The notes beneath the pieces were generated by a model. It saw only the letters and a list, made by a program, of their open reading frames with translations. It did not search any database and was not told where the DNA came from. A program made the position numbers and the translations under genes. Positions 12,806-33,044 of a stretch of DNA of 33,044 nucleotides are shown in pieces. The stretch spans positions 1 to 33,044 of the forward strand of contig JAKLKB010000068.1 in NCBI GenBank assembly GCA_023150835.1. Reading direction: 5' to 3'. The first letter of the stretch is position 1, and the number at the start of each line of letters is the position of its first letter. This stretch comes from Myxococcota bacterium. GTDB lineage: Bacteria; Myxococcota_C; UBA6777.

Positions 12806-13879
12806 ATGCCCGCACCTTCGGATATCCGCGTCTGTGTCACAGGAGCCGCCGGCTTTATCGGCACACACATCGTCCATCTGTCGCTACAGCGGGGTTATCG
12901 TGTTCGTGGCACCGTACGCGACGCAAACAACGCCAAAAAGATCCAGCACCTACGCGAAATCGCCCAAAAAACCCAAGGCGATCTCGAACTCGTTAGTGCC
13001 GATATCCAAGACGCCGATTCTCTGCTCCAAGCTGTGCGCGGATGCACTTGGGTTTGCCATGTCGCCTCGGCGGTTCAACTCCAAGCCAAAGACCCCCAAA
13101 AACAGATCGTTGATGTCGCTGTCCAAGGCACCCAAAACATCCTTCACGCCGTCACACAAGCCAAAGATGTCAAACGCCTGATCATCACCTCTTCTGTCGC
13201 TGCGATCTACAGCGATCTCCCCAAACCCCAACACCGATACACCGAAGCCGACTGGAACGAAACCGCCACCCTTCAAAGCAATCCCTACGCACTTTCCAAG
13301 ACACTCGCGGAAAAAGCCGCTTGGGATCAATGGAAAAAACTCCCAGAAAAAGACCGCTTTGATCTCATCACGATCTGCCCTGCCCTTGTATGGGGGCCTG
13401 TGTACACACAAGACCACCTCCGCACAAGCCCTGTCGTCCTCTTTGATGTCCTGCGCGGAAAATTCCCCGCCATCCCCAACTTTTCATGGGGCATCGTCGA
13501 TGTCCGTGACGTGGCCGACGCACATCTGCGCGCACTCGAATCCCCCCAAGCTTCCGGACGATACCTTTGCAGCCACCAATCTATCTGGCTGCACGAAGCC
13601 ATCGCCCAACTCAAACCCCATTTTCCCCACGTCCGCTTCCCTTCCCGCCGCCTCCCCGACTTTCTGATGTACCTCGTCGCCCTCTTTGACAAGCGCCTCT
13701 CTTTCTCCTTCCTGCGCCGAAACCTCAGCATCCAAACACTCTTCGACAACACCCGCATCCAACGCGATCTCGACCTCCACTTCCGCCCCCTCGACACCAC
13801 CCTCCGCGAGATGTGCCAATCCTTCTTTGATCGCGGCTTCCTATCCAAAGACCTCAAGCGAAATCCGAGAGATGTGTGA
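12806..13879 (+). CDS. NAD(P)-dependent epimerase/dehydratase, dihydroflavonol-4-reductase-like (extended SDR)
   Basis: 357 residues. The frame is open much further upstream but the ATG at 12806 has AAGGAG 6 bases before it and begins the Rossmann fold at once. Seen: TGAAGFIG (12-19) for NAD(P) binding, CHVASAV (84-90), ITSSVAAIY with S130, and Y161-x3-K165 in NPYALSK, all standard for extended SDRs of the DFR/3-beta-HSD group, which reduce ketones or oxidise sterol and sugar hydroxyls. WGIVDVRDVADAHLRAL at about 226-242 is the family's substrate-side motif. Length and order are normal, with no signal peptide. A hydrophobic stretch near FLMYLVALFD (about 285) is short. It stands alone on the plus strand, with unusual repeats upstream and a 9-bp tandem array directly downstream. 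Substrate not deducible. Confidence 0.88.
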   Translation: MPAPSDIRVCVTGAAGFIGTHIVHLSLQRGYRVRGTVRDANNAKKIQHLREIAQKTQGDLELVSADIQDADSLLQAVRGCTWVCHVASAVQLQAKDPQKQIVDVAVQGTQNILHAVTQAKDVKRLIITSSVAAIYSDLPKPQHRYTEADWNETATLQSNPYALSKTLAEKAAWDQWKKLPEKDRFDLITICPALVWGPVYTQDHLRTSPVVLFDVLRGKFPAIPNFSWGIVDVRDVADAHLRALESPQASGRYLCSHQSIWLHEAIAQLKPHFPHVRFPSRRLPDFLMYLVALFDKRLSFSFLRRNLSIQTLFDNTRIQRDLDLHFRPLDTTLREMCQSFFDRGFLSKDLKRNPRDV

Positions 13880-13888
13880 GCGAAGACC

Positions 13889-14120
13889 CGCCTCTTCCGC
13901 CTCTTCCGCCCCTTCCGCCCCTTCCGCCTCTTCCGCCTCTTCCGCCCCTTCCGCCCCTTCCGCCTCTTCCGCCTCTTCCGCCTCTTCCGCCTCTTCCGCC
14001 TCTTCCGCCTCTTCCGCCCCTTCCGCCTCTTCCTCCTCTTCCGCCTCTTCCGCCTCTTCCGCCTCTTCCGCCCCTTCCTCCCCTTCCGCCCCTTCCGCCC
14101 CTTCCTCCCTCTCCGCCCCT
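13889..14120. repeat. Imperfect 9-bp tandem array (about 26 units)
   Basis: Units of CTCTTCCGC / CCCTTCCGC repeat from just after the epimerase stop. All six frames read as low-complexity peptides (SASSASS, PPLPPLPPL, GGRGGR, EEAEEA), because the period is a multiple of three; none has a convincing start, binding site or non-repetitive body. Array length could vary between strains. Confidence 0.8.
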
Positions 14121-14130
14121 TCTTTTTCTG

Positions 14131-14185
14131 CCTTCTTTCCGTGCCTTCCGTGTTTTCCGTGGACTCTTCTTTTTGTACGTTTCCA
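14131..14185. repeat. Dispersed CCGTGCCTTCCGTG / CCGTGGACTCTTC motif, copy 1
   Basis: TTTCCGTGCCTTCCGTG, then TTTTCCGTGGACTCTTCTTT, matches segments at 22970-23005 and 25562-25685. On the minus strand each would read VHGKHGRHGKK-like peptides, but no real gene is evident. The rest of the 624-bp gap to the receptor contains the promoter and CRP-like site listed separately, and a 250-bp pyrimidine-rich leader in which I see no known riboswitch. Confidence 0.5.
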
Positions 14186-21834: not shown

Positions 21835-21858
21835 AACCCCGTCCCTTCGCCCTCTCCA

Positions 21859-21970
21859 CACACCTCCTCATCTCCCCGTCCCTCCGCACACCTCCTCATC
21901 TCCCCGTCCCTCCGCACACCTCCTCATCTCCCCGTCCCTTCGCACACCTCCTCATCTCCCCGTCCCTTCG
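21859..21970. repeat. 28-bp tandem repeat, 4 copies
   Basis: Four head-to-tail units starting CACACCTCCTCATCTCCCCG at 21859, 21887, 21915 and 21943; units 1-2 end TCCCTCCG and 3-4 end TCCCTTCG. A partial unit flanks each side. It sits just beyond the 3' end of the minus-strand transporter gene. 28 is not a multiple of three, so it is not coding. Confidence 0.85.
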
Positions 21971-22000
21971 CACTCTCCGCACACCTCCATATCCCTCGAC

Positions 22001-25481: not shown

Positions 25482-25561
25482 CCGCTGTCACCTCCTCCTC
25501 GATCGGTGTTTGTGGGGTTTCACCTCCCCTGTTCACGGTCTTTGGCTCTTACAGGGGGACA

Positions 25562-25685
25562 ACTTTCCGTACTTTCCGTACTTTCCGTACTTTCCGTACT
25601 TTCCGTGCTTTCCGTACTTTCCGTGCTTTCCGTGCTTTGCGAAGCGCGCAACTCCCGTTGGTCGTTGTCCGTGGACTCTTCTTTT
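25562..25685. repeat. 9-bp (ACTTTCCGT) tandem array, about 9 copies, with adjacent CCGTGGACTCTTC
   Basis: ACTTTCCGT / GCTTTCCGT units run from 25562 to about 25642, followed at 25670 by the CCGTGGACTCTTCTTT tail also seen at 14131 and 22970. On the minus strand this reads as KHGKYGKHGKY, on the plus as FPYFPYF or VLSVLSV, with no non-repetitive domain or start site, so coding is not supported. Confidence 0.6.
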
Positions 25686-25792: not shown

Positions 25793-25837
25793 ATCGCACG
25801 AGTTCCTAAGGTTTCCCCCCCGCCTCGACTGTTCCCC

Positions 25838-26182
25838 CTTCTGGAAACCTGAACGCCTTCGAGCGCCCTCCGCAACCTCTTCTGGAAACCTGAACGCCTT
25901 CGAGCGCCCTCCGCAACCTCTTCTGGAAACCTGAACGCTGCCAAAAAGTCCCGCAAGGCTTTACTAGAAACTTTTTTGGAACAATGCTGCTTCGATTTTG
26001 TGCTTCTGCAAACCAGAACGGCACAATCGCCTTTTTTTTTGCCGTTCAACGAACCTGAACGCCTTTGGGCGCTCCCCCCGACCTCTTCTGGAAACCTGAA
26101 CGCCTTTGGGCGCTCCCCCCGACCTCTTCTGGAAACCTGAACGCCTTCGTGCGCTCCCCCCGACCTCTTCTGGAAACCTGAG
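25838..26182. repeat. 41-bp minisatellite, about 8.4 units (two degenerate)
   Basis: Core CTTCTGGAAACCTGAACGCC begins at 25838, 25879, 25920, 26085, 26126 and 26167 (last truncated), exactly 41 bases apart within each block. Between the two blocks the units at about 25961, 26003 and 26044 are degenerate (e.g. CTTCTGCAAACCAGAACG near 26003), in phase apart from one or two extra bases. Whole units repeat, including what would be spacers, so it is not a CRISPR. The period is not divisible by three, so it is not coding. It fills much of the 732-bp gap downstream of glnN, ending at the stop of the minus-strand gene. Confidence 0.85.
26016..26047. other. 8-bp inverted repeat with a long T-run inside the loop
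   Basis: GAACGGCA (26016-26023) and TGCCGTTC (26040-26047) are perfect complements around a 16-base loop ending in nine or more T. It lies in the degenerate part of the 41-bp array. A terminator normally has the T-run after the stem, so function is unclear. Confidence 0.45.
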
Positions 26183-26213
26183 ATGGGATGGGAAATAGGC
26201 GAAGTATACGAGG

Positions 26214-28199
26214 CTAACGTTGTGGAGGTGCCACAGGCTGCGACGGGGGAATCTCCATCCCGCGACTCGGGGCTGTGGAGGGTTCTTCTTTTGGGTCTGT
26301 TGGTGCGGGCGATGCCGCGCCTGCCGGCTTCATCTGCAAGTAGCTATCGAAGTCGCTATTGCTGTTGATCGGGCGCATACGACCCCACATCCAAGCGTAT
26401 TGCATCGGAAACATCGCCGTCAACACCGCTTGCATCCCCTGTAACCTCGGTGCATAACGTCGCGCCAACACTGCCATCTTCTCGATATCCAAATACCCCA
26501 CCCCGTTGTTCGCGGGGCTTTGCTTGAGCGCTTGCGCAAAATGCGCAGCCTGCAACACAGAAGCCGCCTTGTTTTCTGTCGTATCGAGGATCGCTCGCAA
26601 CATCGGAAGCGTCGCCCCTCTCTCGGGTTCCACCGTCAACACCGCAAAACGCCCCACCCGCATCAGCGCGATATCCAATGGAAACCCACTTGGTCCCGAC
26701 ACTTGCGCTCGGTACACCACACCGCTCGGCGTCGTAAAACTCGATAGCTTCGCTCGCGGATTCGCCCCCAACGTCTGAACTCCACGCGCCCACCACCGAC
26801 CCATCTTCTCGTCAAAGCTCGCTCCATCCGCGATCTCCAGATACAACGCCCCTTGCAACATCTTTTGGCCTTGCGCAGACAACGTAAACGCCACTTCTTC
26901 ACCCAAGATGCCTCGCCACTTGGCCAGCGGGATATTCATCGGCATCGGACCCATCGCCTTAAGCATCTCGTCGAAGAAATCGACATACACTCGCACAAAA
27001 TTCCCGCTCAACAACGCAAACACATCTTTCGGGATCGATGAATACACCCGCATCGCCGACACCAACGGCAACGTCTTGATCGCACGAATCAACGGAAGCT
27101 GATCGCCTCCTTTGATCTCCATCTTCATCCCCGCGCTGTAGCGATCCCCTTGCACTTTCCCAATCAACCACGCATCCCCGTAAACTCCGATGTATTTCTT
27201 CGAGTACTCCTGAAACTTATCCAAGTACTCCATGAAAGGCATCCCCTGAAGCTGCTTCATCTGTTGTTGCTGCTGCTTCATCGCATCCTTCGTGAACTCC
27301 TGATAATTCAGATACATCTGAAATCGCGTCTGGGCATCTTGGTTCTGCACAAAAGCGTCATGCTTCGGGTGTTTCGCTTGGGTCGAAAATCGATCCAAGG
27401 CCGCTCGCAAACTCTCTGGCCGCGACGCCAACACCACATAACCTGCCTTGTGGATCGCCACCCCAAGCTTGTCCATGCGCATCACATACGCCTCTTTGTA
27501 AGGCGTCAACGGCGGAGCCTGTAGATTTTTTTGCATCCACACCTGCGGGTTGTCGAGATCTCCGCACGTCACCGTATCCCCTTGGATCACAAATGCACGC
27601 ATCTCCCGACACGCCCCTCGCTTGCGCATCATCCCACTCGTAAACAACTCGCCCATATCCTTGGGCATCCGACCATAACGCGACTGGTACAACTGCACCG
27701 CTTGCCGCGCATCCGCACAGATCCGCTGACATGTCTGGTACTCTTGCATCGCAAAATAATTCGGCAACACCTGCTTCACCAACGCCAACACCCGATCCGT
27801 ATTCTGCAACGGCAACACCGCGATCATATCGGGGATTCCTTTGGCCGAGTACAAGTCGCTAAAATACACTGTCGCGCTCGGACGCGCCGGCAAGCCCAAC
27901 GCCGCAAAGGTCTCGTTCCAATCCTGCGGAATCGACGGCAATCGTAGCATCTGCGCCATCTGCATCCGCCCCATCCCCAACACCCCTCGCGCTGTCGCCT
28001 CCATTCCATAACGGCCCGAAAGCGCCATCAGATCGTCCAAAGAAGCCTGCACATCGTTGAAATGGAAGATCATCGACCCCTTGCTGTCAAAAAACCGCAG
28101 CGCTGTATACGGTTGGGCTTGGACTCCCCATGCACTCAACCACAACCACGCTCCCAGCAACGCCACCAATCCCCGCATCATCCGTCTTTTTCGTTGCAT
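26214..28199 (-). CDS. Exported DUF3352-like protein of unknown function
   Basis: 661 residues from the ATG at 28199, where AAAAGGAG lies 5 bases upstream on the minus strand; the frame extends 25 codons further but without a binding site. Signal peptide MQRKRRMMRGLVALLGAWLW ends in VQA (cleavage before Q29), so it is periplasmic or outer-membrane associated. The body has the long alternating pattern of DUF3352-type proteins known from myxobacteria and cyanobacteria (FSDLYSAKGIPDMIAVLPLQ, VVLASRPESLRAALDR), but I am not certain of the family. An inserted segment at about 155-215 has four Cys (C157, C161, C197, C212) around QAVQLYQSRYGRMPKDMGEL, resembling the secreted type-IV-pilin-like C-terminal pattern. 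A Gln-rich patch MKQQQQQMKQLQ and a Pro-rich tail follow. No neighbour suggests a pathway. Confidence 0.7.
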   Translation of the reverse strand: MQRKRRMMRGLVALLGAWLWLSAWGVQAQPYTALRFFDSKGSMIFHFNDVQASLDDLMALSGRYGMEATARGVLGMGRMQMAQMLRLPSIPQDWNETFAALGLPARPSATVYFSDLYSAKGIPDMIAVLPLQNTDRVLALVKQVLPNYFAMQEYQTCQRICADARQAVQLYQSRYGRMPKDMGELFTSGMMRKRGACREMRAFVIQGDTVTCGDLDNPQVWMQKNLQAPPLTPYKEAYVMRMDKLGVAIHKAGYVVLASRPESLRAALDRFSTQAKHPKHDAFVQNQDAQTRFQMYLNYQEFTKDAMKQQQQQMKQLQGMPFMEYLDKFQEYSKKYIGVYGDAWLIGKVQGDRYSAGMKMEIKGGDQLPLIRAIKTLPLVSAMRVYSSIPKDVFALLSGNFVRVYVDFFDEMLKAMGPMPMNIPLAKWRGILGEEVAFTLSAQGQKMLQGALYLEIADGASFDEKMGRWWARGVQTLGANPRAKLSSFTTPSGVVYRAQVSGPSGFPLDIALMRVGRFAVLTVEPERGATLPMLRAILDTTENKAASVLQAAHFAQALKQSPANNGVGYLDIEKMAVLARRYAPRLQGMQAVLTAMFPMQYAWMWGRMRPINSNSDFDSYLQMKPAGAASPAPTDPKEEPSTAPSRGMEIPPSQPVAPPQR

Positions 28200-28336: not shown

Positions 28337-28475
28337 GCCCAAAAACCGTGTTCGCACCCGCCCAAGCGAGAGCATTGCCTGTTTGAAAAACGCTCGATCT
28401 CTTCGCCGATACGGGGTCAAGGGTGCCGCGACCTATGGCGGGGCGTGGGGTGGAACCCCACAAAGCCGAACAGAC
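28337..28475 (+). repeat. Dispersed hairpin repeat (about 135 bp family), copy B
   Basis: Contains CCGTGTTCGCACCCG, TTTGAAAAACGCTC, CGCCGATACGGGGTCAAGGG and the end hairpin GTGGGGT-GGA-ACCCCAC followed by CAAAGCCGAA. Best match is copy C at 30882-31015 in the opposite orientation. It occupies the middle of the 458-bp gap upstream of the exported-protein gene. Confidence 0.75.
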
Positions 28476-30697: not shown

Positions 30698-30881
30698 CCT
30701 TCGCTCCTTCGCTTCGCTTCCTTCGGTGAACCTTGGCTCATCGTTGTACCCAAACGCCCCTCCCCCGACAAGGCCCCTTCTCCACACCACCACAAGCCAT
30801 CCGCTTCTTTTCGGGTTTAGGCCGCGTGTTGTGGGTTTTGTTTTTGGCCGCTCTTTGCGTTTGTTTTGGCTGCTCTTTCGG

Positions 30882-31015
30882 CTTTGTGGGGTGCCACCCC
30901 ACGCCCCGCAAGGGAACTTCGTCCCCTTGACCCCGTATCGGCGAACAAAGCATCCTTTTTCAAGCCAACAACACCATCGATTGGACGGGTGCGAACACGC
31001 CTTTTCAAACCCATC
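30882..31015 (-). repeat. Dispersed hairpin repeat (about 135 bp family), copy C
   Basis: Read on the minus strand: GTGTTCGCACCCG, then CGCCGATACGGGGTCAAGGG, an arm pair AAGGGGAC-GAA-GTTCCCTT, GCGGGGC, and the hairpin GTGGGGT-GGC-ACCCCAC. It lies in the 721-bp gap between fadH and the last gene. That gap also holds the palindromic C/G element at 31206 and a MITE-like end at 31332-31347, with the remaining sequence C-rich and unassigned. Confidence 0.7.
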
Positions 31016-31418: not shown

Positions 31419-32813
31419 ATGGCTATCACACGCCCCACCCATCCTGCGATCCCACAGACAACCTCGACAACTTCGACAACCTCTGCTGCCCCGAGACCGA
31501 CAGGCTCCACAGCCCCAGCGTCCCCGACGACGGCACATCCAACCACGACGCCCCCAACTACGGCAGCAGCGCTCCCTGCGGCCCAAGATCAATTTTCTCC
31601 AGAGCTTGGTTCGAGTTTTGTTCACCAGCTTCTTGGGTTAGATCGAGACGCAGACGGACGGATCAGCCGCCAAGAGTTTGCCACAGGCCAACCCACCCTT
31701 GAACGCATCAGCCAAGACGGGCGCCCCCAAAATCGCGCCGAACAAAGCGTATTTCGCGCCATGATGGACGCTTATCGGAGTACCCCAAGCCAGCCCACAC
31801 CGACGAGTCCATCACCCACGACTCCAAGTACTCCCGTATCTCCGTCCCTGACAAGCCCCAACGCCTCCGCAACCAACGAAAACGACCCCTTGCTCTCTTA
31901 CAGCATCCAAGATGGACGCCTAGTCGCGCTCGCTCCTCATGCGGGGACATCGATCCCACCGCTATTTTCGACGCCTCATCTCGATGCAAACCAAGGGGGG
32001 CTGCCCTCCACCTTACTGGCGACTCCTACAGCCCGCGTCATACACGGCGATGACCCGGGAGATTTCTACTGCGAACACATGTTCTTTGGCGCACAGATGG
32101 CGGCTTCTGCACCCGAAAGCAGCATCCAAACCAACGCCCAAGGCGAAAAGCTTGTGGGCTTCTTGCACGTTCCTTCGGATGCTTGGACGCAACAAGCCTC
32201 CTCCGCAGGTTACACCCAAGAACAACGTCACGCAGGAACCCGCCAAGTGATCGGTGCTGCGTTGCGCGGATACGCCGACCAGATCGCCGCGCAACAAACA
32301 GACGGGTCGATCCGTATGATGTTAACGGGTTATGACCAGTTCATGTCTGTTCGCAACAACCCAACGGGCGACTTTGTCTCTCATCGCGAAAACCTTGATG
32401 CGAGTATGCGCGCTGCGTTTGGCGATCGGTTGCTTACCCCCCAAGGCTCGCCCGTATCGATCGAGCCGCCCCCTTCCACCGACACGCACTCCTACCGCTA
32501 CACGATCCGAGGCGAAGACGGAACCCCCCGCGAGATCGAGCTTACAGCGTCTCGCTTTCCTGTGGACGATACCACGATCAATCCGCAGTCTTCGACTTCG
32601 ATCCAACGATCCATTTCCCGATATGCCCCCCACGCCGTGATCTCGATGGGTGTCGCAGGCTCGGGTTCCTACAAGGCCGAACACCGCGCCGATAGCGGCG
32701 GCCTGTTGCGCACCTCAGACAGCGCACAACACAACGAATCCGCCACCGACACCCTCCGCCTGCGTGATAACTTCTCCCTCGCACGCGCCATCCACGCCGG
32801 ACAACGACCCTAA
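31419..32813 (+). CDS. EF-hand protein with a putative circularly permuted pyroglutamyl-peptidase (C15) domain
   Basis: 464 residues; GAGGA at 31406-31410, 8-base spacing to the ATG. Residues 1-55 are Thr/Pro/Ser-rich, probably disordered; no signal peptide is seen. An EF-hand loop DRDADGRISRQE (75-86) has the canonical Ca2+ ligand pattern. After a Pro/Thr linker comes a domain whose parts match pyroglutamyl peptidase I in swapped order: PPLFSTP...GGLPSTLL (180-200), the Cys motif PGDFYCEH with C218, and GFLHVP with H250, followed by MLTGYDQF and NNPTG (302-317; normally the N-terminus), FPVDDT, and PHAVISMGVAGSGSYKAEHRA (404-424) with E421. All three catalytic residues (C, H, E) are thus present. 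Known enzymes remove N-terminal pyroglutamate from peptides. Activity here is inferred. It stands alone on the plus strand. Confidence 0.75.
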   Translation: MAITRPTHPAIPQTTSTTSTTSAAPRPTGSTAPASPTTAHPTTTPPTTAAALPAAQDQFSPELGSSFVHQLLGLDRDADGRISRQEFATGQPTLERISQDGRPQNRAEQSVFRAMMDAYRSTPSQPTPTSPSPTTPSTPVSPSLTSPNASATNENDPLLSYSIQDGRLVALAPHAGTSIPPLFSTPHLDANQGGLPSTLLATPTARVIHGDDPGDFYCEHMFFGAQMAASAPESSIQTNAQGEKLVGFLHVPSDAWTQQASSAGYTQEQRHAGTRQVIGAALRGYADQIAAQQTDGSIRMMLTGYDQFMSVRNNPTGDFVSHRENLDASMRAAFGDRLLTPQGSPVSIEPPPSTDTHSYRYTIRGEDGTPREIELTASRFPVDDTTINPQSSTSIQRSISRYAPHAVISMGVAGSGSYKAEHRADSGGLLRTSDSAQHNESATDTLRLRDNFSLARAIHAGQRP

Positions 32814-32927
32814 CTCCTCGCCCCACCGAAGCCAACGCCCCCGACGCACCTCGACCAACACGCGAAACATGCCTCGCACCCGCCCGAGCCACCCGCCCCC
32901 AAACTCGAAAACACCTCACAACAAAAA

Positions 32928-33044
32928 AGCCGTGTTCGTAGCACTTCAAGCGACACAGATGTTGGTTTGAAAAACGCTGTTGGCCCCGTCCATACGGGGT
33001 CAAGGGAGCCGCGCTCCCTGCGGGGCGTGGGGCAGCGCCCCATA
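32928..33044 (+). repeat. Dispersed hairpin repeat (about 135 bp family), copy D, cut by the window end
   Basis: AAAAAAGCCGTGTTCGTAGC, TTTGAAAAACGCTG, CATACGGGGTCAAGGGAGCC, then two hairpins AGGGAGC-CGC-GCTCCCT and TGGGGC-AGC-GCCCCA. Same order as copies A-C but different arm sequences with pairing kept. Confidence 0.7.

What the first reader, a model, noticed from the sequence alone, without database searches (positions are those of the whole stretch)
31419..32813. Circularly permuted pyroglutamyl peptidase fused to an EF-hand
In ordinary C15 peptidases the order is TGFEPF...NP (N-terminus), G-Q-A-G...E, then S-x-x-A-G-x-Y/F-x-C-N, then GF-I-H-V-P. Here the Cys block (PGDFYCEH, C218) and the GFLHVP block (H250) come first, and MLTGYDQF...NNPTG and GVAGSGSYKAEHRA (E421) come after, so the chain appears cut between the Glu and Cys motifs and rejoined. 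Segments around each motif also align (FSTP...GLPS before the Cys; PHAVISMG before the Glu), and the Cys-His-Glu triad is intact, with a one-residue deletion before the Glu. A preceding EF-hand loop suggests Ca2+ control. I know of no described permuted member of this family.
Basis: partly seen in the sequence, partly recalled or inferred. Interest (0 to 1): 0.88.

Follow-up and report, generated by a model that had tools for sequence, protein, structure and literature searches.

The report
Circularly permuted pyroglutamyl-peptidase homologue
This bacterial gene encodes a relative of the enzyme that clips pyroglutamate from the ends of peptides, but with the two parts of its chain joined in swapped order; at least 20 bacterial proteins share the same rearrangement, so it is a real and, as far as could be searched, undescribed branch of this enzyme group.

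Summary
The 464-aa ORF at 31419-32813 carries the Cys, then His, then the N-terminal and Glu motifs of peptidase family C15, in rotated order. A 20-member profile against 14 ordinary C15 sequences gives two out-of-order hits in native order (scores 65.5 and 63.9) and one full-length hit when the order is restored (115.9, E 6e-17); 100 column shuffles reach at most 18.8. The same profile picks C15 crystal structures as its 20 best PDB hits, as out-of-order segments. Homologues in 19 other loci, the named ones mostly Myxococcota, have the same order and form one clade (SH-aLRT 99). C218, H250 and E421 are invariant in 20/20 permuted and 36/36 ordinary sequences. AlphaFold models the domain confidently (pLDDT 89.8, pTM 0.90), with secondary structure in the order expected of a rotated C15. 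Most likely a thiol exopeptidase of C15 type; substrate unproven, because the Asn after the catalytic Cys is Glu or Ala and the PDN loop is lost. The single EF-hand loop is real as a motif but not conserved, so Ca2+ control is unsupported.

The parts
31419..32813 (+). ORF of the permuted C15-like protein, 464 aa
31419..31586 (+). Pro/Thr/Ser/Ala-rich, predicted disordered N-terminus (residues 1-56), no hydrophobic signal-like stretch
31641..31676 (+). Single EF-hand-like loop DRDADGRISRQE (residues 75-86)
   Evidence: PF13202 E 0.026, below cut-off; absent from nearly all homologues
32001..32810 (+). Permuted C15 domain (residues 195-464)
32058..32084 (+). Cys motif GDFYCEHMF (residues 214-222; catalytic C218 at 32070-32072), equals C15 AG-x-[FY]-x-C-N-H
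32157..32174 (+). His motif GFLHVP (residues 247-252; H250 at 32166-32168)
32217..32294 (+). Long helix (residues 267-292), equivalent to the C-terminal helix of ordinary C15
   Evidence: alignment reaches C15 profile position 203
32295..32309 (+). Short linker joining the ancestral C-terminus to the ancestral N-terminus (residues 293-297)
   Evidence: rotation plateau 256-300
32310..32369 (+). Ancestral N-terminal strand and TG[YF]xxF...NPTG motif (residues 298-317)
32388..32528 (+). Insert with a beta hairpin between helix 1 and strand 2 (about residues 324-370); shorter or absent in distant members
32628..32690 (+). Glu motif PHAVISMGVAGSGSYKAEHRA (residues 404-424; E421 at 32679-32681)
32769..32801 (+). 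C-terminal helix NFSLARAIHAG (residues 451-461), inferred equivalent of the C15 helix LPIKEIVKGVK that precedes the Cys strand; new C-terminus follows

Best explanation
A natural circular permutant of the pyroglutamyl-peptidase I (C15, clan CF) fold. In one ancestor the C-terminal helix was joined by a short linker to the N-terminal strand, and new ends opened between the helix that precedes the Cys strand and that strand (the usual route is tandem duplication followed by trimming; that route is inferred, not seen). The domain is predicted to refold into the same alpha/beta/alpha arrangement, placing C218 (nucleophile), H250 (base) and E421 (orienting acid) as in ordinary C15. It then acts as a thiol omega-peptidase that removes a cyclised or similar N-terminal residue. 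Shown: homology, rotated order, single clade, invariance of the triad. Inferred: fold identity, catalysis and substrate class. The loss of the Asn after the Cys and of the PDN loop suggests an altered substrate pocket.
For: Profile comparison: two out-of-order hits in native order, one full-length hit after restoring order, shuffles far below. Rotation scan peaks only when the cut falls in residues 256-300. HMMER with the permuted profile: 20 best PDB hits are all C15 enzymes, best 1iu8 E 2.1e-8, in three out-of-order segments. NCBIfam pyroglutamyl-peptidase I models match all 12 members of A2, best 8.9e-11; Pfam C15 matches 6 of 12, best 1.7e-7. Triad invariant in 20/20 and N314 in 20/20. Model pLDDT 89.8, pTM 0.90. 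One clade on the tree, SH-aLRT 99.
Against: Asn after Cys is Glu (17/20) or Ala (3/20) instead of Asn (36/36 in ordinary C15); Asp of the PDN loop lost (19/20); Arg after Glu lost. No direct superposition could be made: order-dependent searches with Foldseek and VIA-align did not list C15. No activity data. The tree is a quick search on restored-order alignments.
Confidence: 0.82

Rival explanations
1. Permuted C15 fold with the same catalytic chemistry but a different substrate (for example another lactam or isopeptide N-terminal group) rather than pyroglutamate. This is a sub-case of the best explanation, so its confidence overlaps with it.
For: C+1 Asn changed to Glu/Ala and PDN loop lost. 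In two related genomes (L005, L006) the gene sits directly upstream of a cyanophycin-synthetase-like gene, a possible isopeptide link. The window genome also keeps an ordinary C15, so plain redundancy is unlikely.
Against: Aromatic positions aligned with F9/F12 of ordinary C15 and N18 are kept. The cyanophycin neighbourhood was not seen in the other loci examined. The genomes of L003-L007 show no ordinary C15 above cut-off, where this protein could replace it.
Confidence: 0.4
2. A catalytically dead or binding-only derivative of C15.
For: Universally conserved Asn next to the Cys is lost.
Against: Cys, His and Glu are all invariant across 20 divergent members (24-52% identity to the window domain).
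Confidence: 0.1
3. Chance motif resemblance, or an assembly or frame artefact.
For: The window protein alone scores weakly (no Pfam C15 hit).
Against: The same order is found in 19 other loci with open frames, and profile scores lie far above shuffles.
Confidence: 0.01
4. EF-hand-regulated (Ca2+-controlled) peptidase.
For: Textbook 12-residue loop at residues 75-86.
Against: Single loop, below Pfam cut-off, predicted disordered, absent from nearly all homologues.
Confidence: 0.07

Closest known systems
Peptidase family C15, pyroglutamyl-peptidase I (clan CF; 1AUG, 1A2Z, 1IU8, PF01470)
   Same: Homologous sequence segments, same Cys-His-Glu residues, conserved NP and TG[FY] motifs, predicted same secondary-structure elements
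   Different: Order of the two halves rotated; Asn after Cys replaced by Glu/Ala; PDN loop lost; insert after helix 1 in most members; disordered P/T-rich N-terminus in many
Canonical-order, about 410-aa C15-like proteins in the phylum of G060 (L070-L088)
   Same: Divergent C15 with VTGYGAFMGITDNPS and ILSMGV segments reminiscent of the permuted group
   Different: Ordinary order, keep C-N, and fall with the other ordinary sequences rather than inside the permuted clade
Circularly permuted NlpC/P60 (LRAT-like, YaeF/YiiX-like) papain-fold enzymes (PMC3142127)
   Same: Precedent for a natural circular permutation in a cysteine peptidase superfamily
   Different: Unrelated fold and clan

Membership tests
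Peptidase C15 / clan CF (MEROPS) | Catalytic set Glu, Cys, His present | tested here: met
   C218, H250 and E421 align with the C15 triad and are invariant, 20/20; triad as described in PMC12445089
Peptidase C15 / clan CF (MEROPS) | Order along the chain Glu - Cys - His | tested here: not met
   Order here is Cys, His, Glu
Peptidase C15 / clan CF (MEROPS) | Significant sequence homology to C15 members | tested here: met
Peptidase C15 / clan CF (MEROPS) | Passes the curated cut-off of PF01470 or NF009676 as a single domain | tested here: not met
   No PF01470 hit for P0001; NF009676 19.7 bits against cut-off 199
Peptidase C15 / clan CF (MEROPS) | Asn directly after the catalytic Cys | tested here: not met
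   Glu 17/20, Ala 3/20 against Asn 36/36
Peptidase C15 / clan CF (MEROPS) | C15 alpha/beta/alpha fold | tested here: inconclusive
   Confident model with secondary-structure order of a rotated C15; order-dependent searches cannot show it
Peptidase C15 / clan CF (MEROPS) | Release of N-terminal pyroglutamate | not testable with these tools
   Needs an enzyme assay
EF-hand proteins | Match above Pfam cut-off, normally paired loops | tested here: not met
   PF13202 14.5 bits against 25.9, PF00036 12 against 25.4, one loop only

The most novel reading that the evidence does not exclude
A monophyletic, naturally circularly permuted sister family of C15 in clan CF, spread over a Myxococcota-centred set of bacteria, with a reshaped pocket (C-N changed to C-E/A, PDN loop lost) and therefore a new substrate specificity.
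Probability: 0.4. Interest if true: 0.72.

Novelty: new variant of a known kind. Interest (0 to 1): 0.58.

Why it matters
Clan CF is described as holding the single family C15 (PMC12445089). A conserved circular permutant with the catalytic residues intact suggests that this fold tolerates new ends at a precise loop, gives a natural test of how permutation affects folding and specificity, and marks a group that order-based annotation misses (no Pfam C15 hit for the window protein).

Tried and rejected
Order-dependent structure searches (Foldseek PDB and VIA-align on both models) listed tyrosine phosphatases, kinesins and other low-scoring folds, and MTAN (a phosphorylase-like fold) over the C-terminal half; no C15 in the rows shown, as expected for a rotated chain, so not informative. 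The single-sequence PDB search found only weak EF-hand and USP8 noise. Plasmid, phage and viral collections gave no homologue. A search over 386 relatives found only the window's own copy. No conserved operon: neighbours differ between loci. The toxin/eCIS lead from PMC3482391 found no support in the neighbours scanned. Whether the sister genome G001 lacks the gene at this locus is unresolved: its contig ends beside the flavin oxidoreductase. Two Pfam scans of N-terminal extensions failed on coordinates and were replaced by a motif scan.

Full report
Observation. The ORF at 31419-32813 (+) translates to 464 aa (P0001). Residues 195-464 hold the C15 motifs in the order Cys (GDFYCEH, C218), His (GFLHVP, H250), N-terminal (MLTGYDQF..NNPTG), Glu (PHAVISMGVAGSGSYKAEHRA, E421). 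Single-sequence searches are weak: only sub-threshold EF-hand models in Pfam, and the NCBIfam pyroglutamyl-peptidase I model at E 0.00068 in two stretches, the better mapping residues 214-282 to profile 139-201.

Relatives. Five loci were found in genome contigs (L003-L007), more in the phylum of G063 (8 of 377 genomes with a match) and in the phylum of G060 (10 of 195 genomes; one of these, L047, is an ordinary-order protein). The named hosts are assigned to Myxococcota/Myxococcia, except L003, titled only 'bacterium'. The window's own phylum has five held genomes, and only the window's genome has it. A draw of 386 relatives, mostly distant, gave no further one; none was found in plasmids, phages or viral contigs. 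The neighbouring flavin oxidoreductase is 93% identical in the same-genus genome G001, so the contig belongs to this lineage.

Test of permutation. With 12 members (A2) against 14 ordinary C15 sequences, hhalign in native order gives query 12-73 to template 125-168 (E 3.5e-8) and query 119-238 to template 2-79 (E 1.1e-7); after restoring the order, a single hit spans template 2-168 (E 1e-15). Rotating the alignment at every sixth column, the score is maximal only when the cut falls in residues 256-300, the linker region. With 20 members (A3): native 65.5 and 63.9, restored 115.9 over template 2-203, E 6.1e-17; 100 column shuffles reach at most 18.8 (whole) and 21.8 or 17.9 (halves), reversed 14.9. 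The A3 profile against PDB sequences gives C15 enzymes as the 20 best hits, with segments 112-136 to 2-26, 203-236 to 47-80 and 14-75 to 121-174 of 1iu8. NCBIfam PRK13197 matches 12 of 12 members; Pfam Peptidase_C15 matches 6 of 12. A plain HMM of the ordinary sequences shows the same three out-of-order segments on P0001, but scores it little better after restoration; the gain comes from the profile-profile comparison.

Anatomy. The domain model (pLDDT 89.8, pTM 0.90) has, in order: strand at 206-210, helix starting at C218 (217-230), strand 246-252, long helix 267-292, strand 298-305, helices 315-321 and 323-337, hairpin 355-380, helix 395-402, strand 406-413, short strands, helix 453-461. 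From general knowledge of C15, this is the ordinary order rotated. The alignment places the new ends between the helix LPIKEIVKGVK and the strand AEIS of ordinary C15; the matching helix here is the C-terminal NFSLARAIHAG (inferred). Coordinates of the model are not available here, so the distance between C218, H250 and E421 was not measured.

Conservation. C218, H250, E421, N314, G304 and G411 are invariant in 20/20 permuted sequences; C, H, E, N and the Gly at 411 also in 36/36 ordinary ones. Differences: the residue after the Cys is Glu 17 / Ala 3 instead of Asn 36/36; the Asp of the PDN loop is missing in 19/20; the Arg after the Glu (11/12 in classic C15) is lost in the window protein and most others. 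On a tree of restored permuted plus ordinary sequences, the permuted set is one side of a branch with SH-aLRT 99 and one change (quick search, restored order), which fits a single origin.

EF-hand and N-terminus. The loop at residues 75-86 is perfect in letters but single, below cut-off, in a region of pLDDT 30-40, and absent from 13 of 15 full permuted proteins examined; the other carrier, L053, has a dockerin-like loop in an unrelated N-terminal region. The N-termini are 49-75% P/T/S/A/Q/G in most members.

Mechanism. Best reading: a thiol omega-peptidase of C15 type built on a rotated chain. C218 attacks the carbonyl of an N-terminal cyclised residue, H250 acts as base, E421 orients His. 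Triad identity is shown by conservation; chemistry and substrate are inferred. The pocket changes leave the substrate open. The window genome also has an ordinary C15 at C19, whereas the genomes of L003-L007 show none above cut-off.

Known literature. No paper in the held library describes a permuted C15; subscription papers and preprints are not covered. PMC12445089 describes clan CF as one family, C15, with a Glu, Cys, His triad. Permuted cysteine peptidases of another fold are known (PMC3142127).

Verdict. Permutation about 0.97 certain; working C15-like enzyme about 0.8; pyroglutamate as substrate about 0.5; Ca2+ control about 0.07.

Noticed in passing
window 28341-28470, 30877-31005, 32922-33044; L098: About 130-nt dispersed intergenic repeat (REP/MITE-like) in both orientations, also in the same-genus contig L098; one copy lies at the window's end and may explain the contig break.
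   Followed up: partly
window 13834-14175, 21854-21993, 25559-25646, 25794-26222: Tandem arrays with units of 9, 28, 9 and 41 nt in stretches between the larger genes.
   Followed up: no
L005:282-5997, L006:5788-11421: Permuted C15 gene directly upstream of a cyanophycin-synthetase-like gene and a Mur-ligase-like gene in two closely related genomes.
   Followed up: partly
L053:5434-8361 (-): 976-aa protein with a permuted C15 domain behind a long uncharacterised region holding GHSERG...ATCFG (possibly caspase-like, unproven) and a DRDGDGRADIFD loop.
   Followed up: partly
L070-L088: Group of mostly 400-500-aa canonical-order divergent C15-like proteins with a long N-terminal extension in the phylum of G060, E-values far weaker than ordinary C15.
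   Followed up: partly
L023/L027 (G118:C11:831046-831664): An ordinary C15 split over two frames, possibly a frameshift or a pseudogene.
   Followed up: no
L001 (G000:C19:3169-3750): The window's genome also has an ordinary C15 gene.
   Followed up: yes
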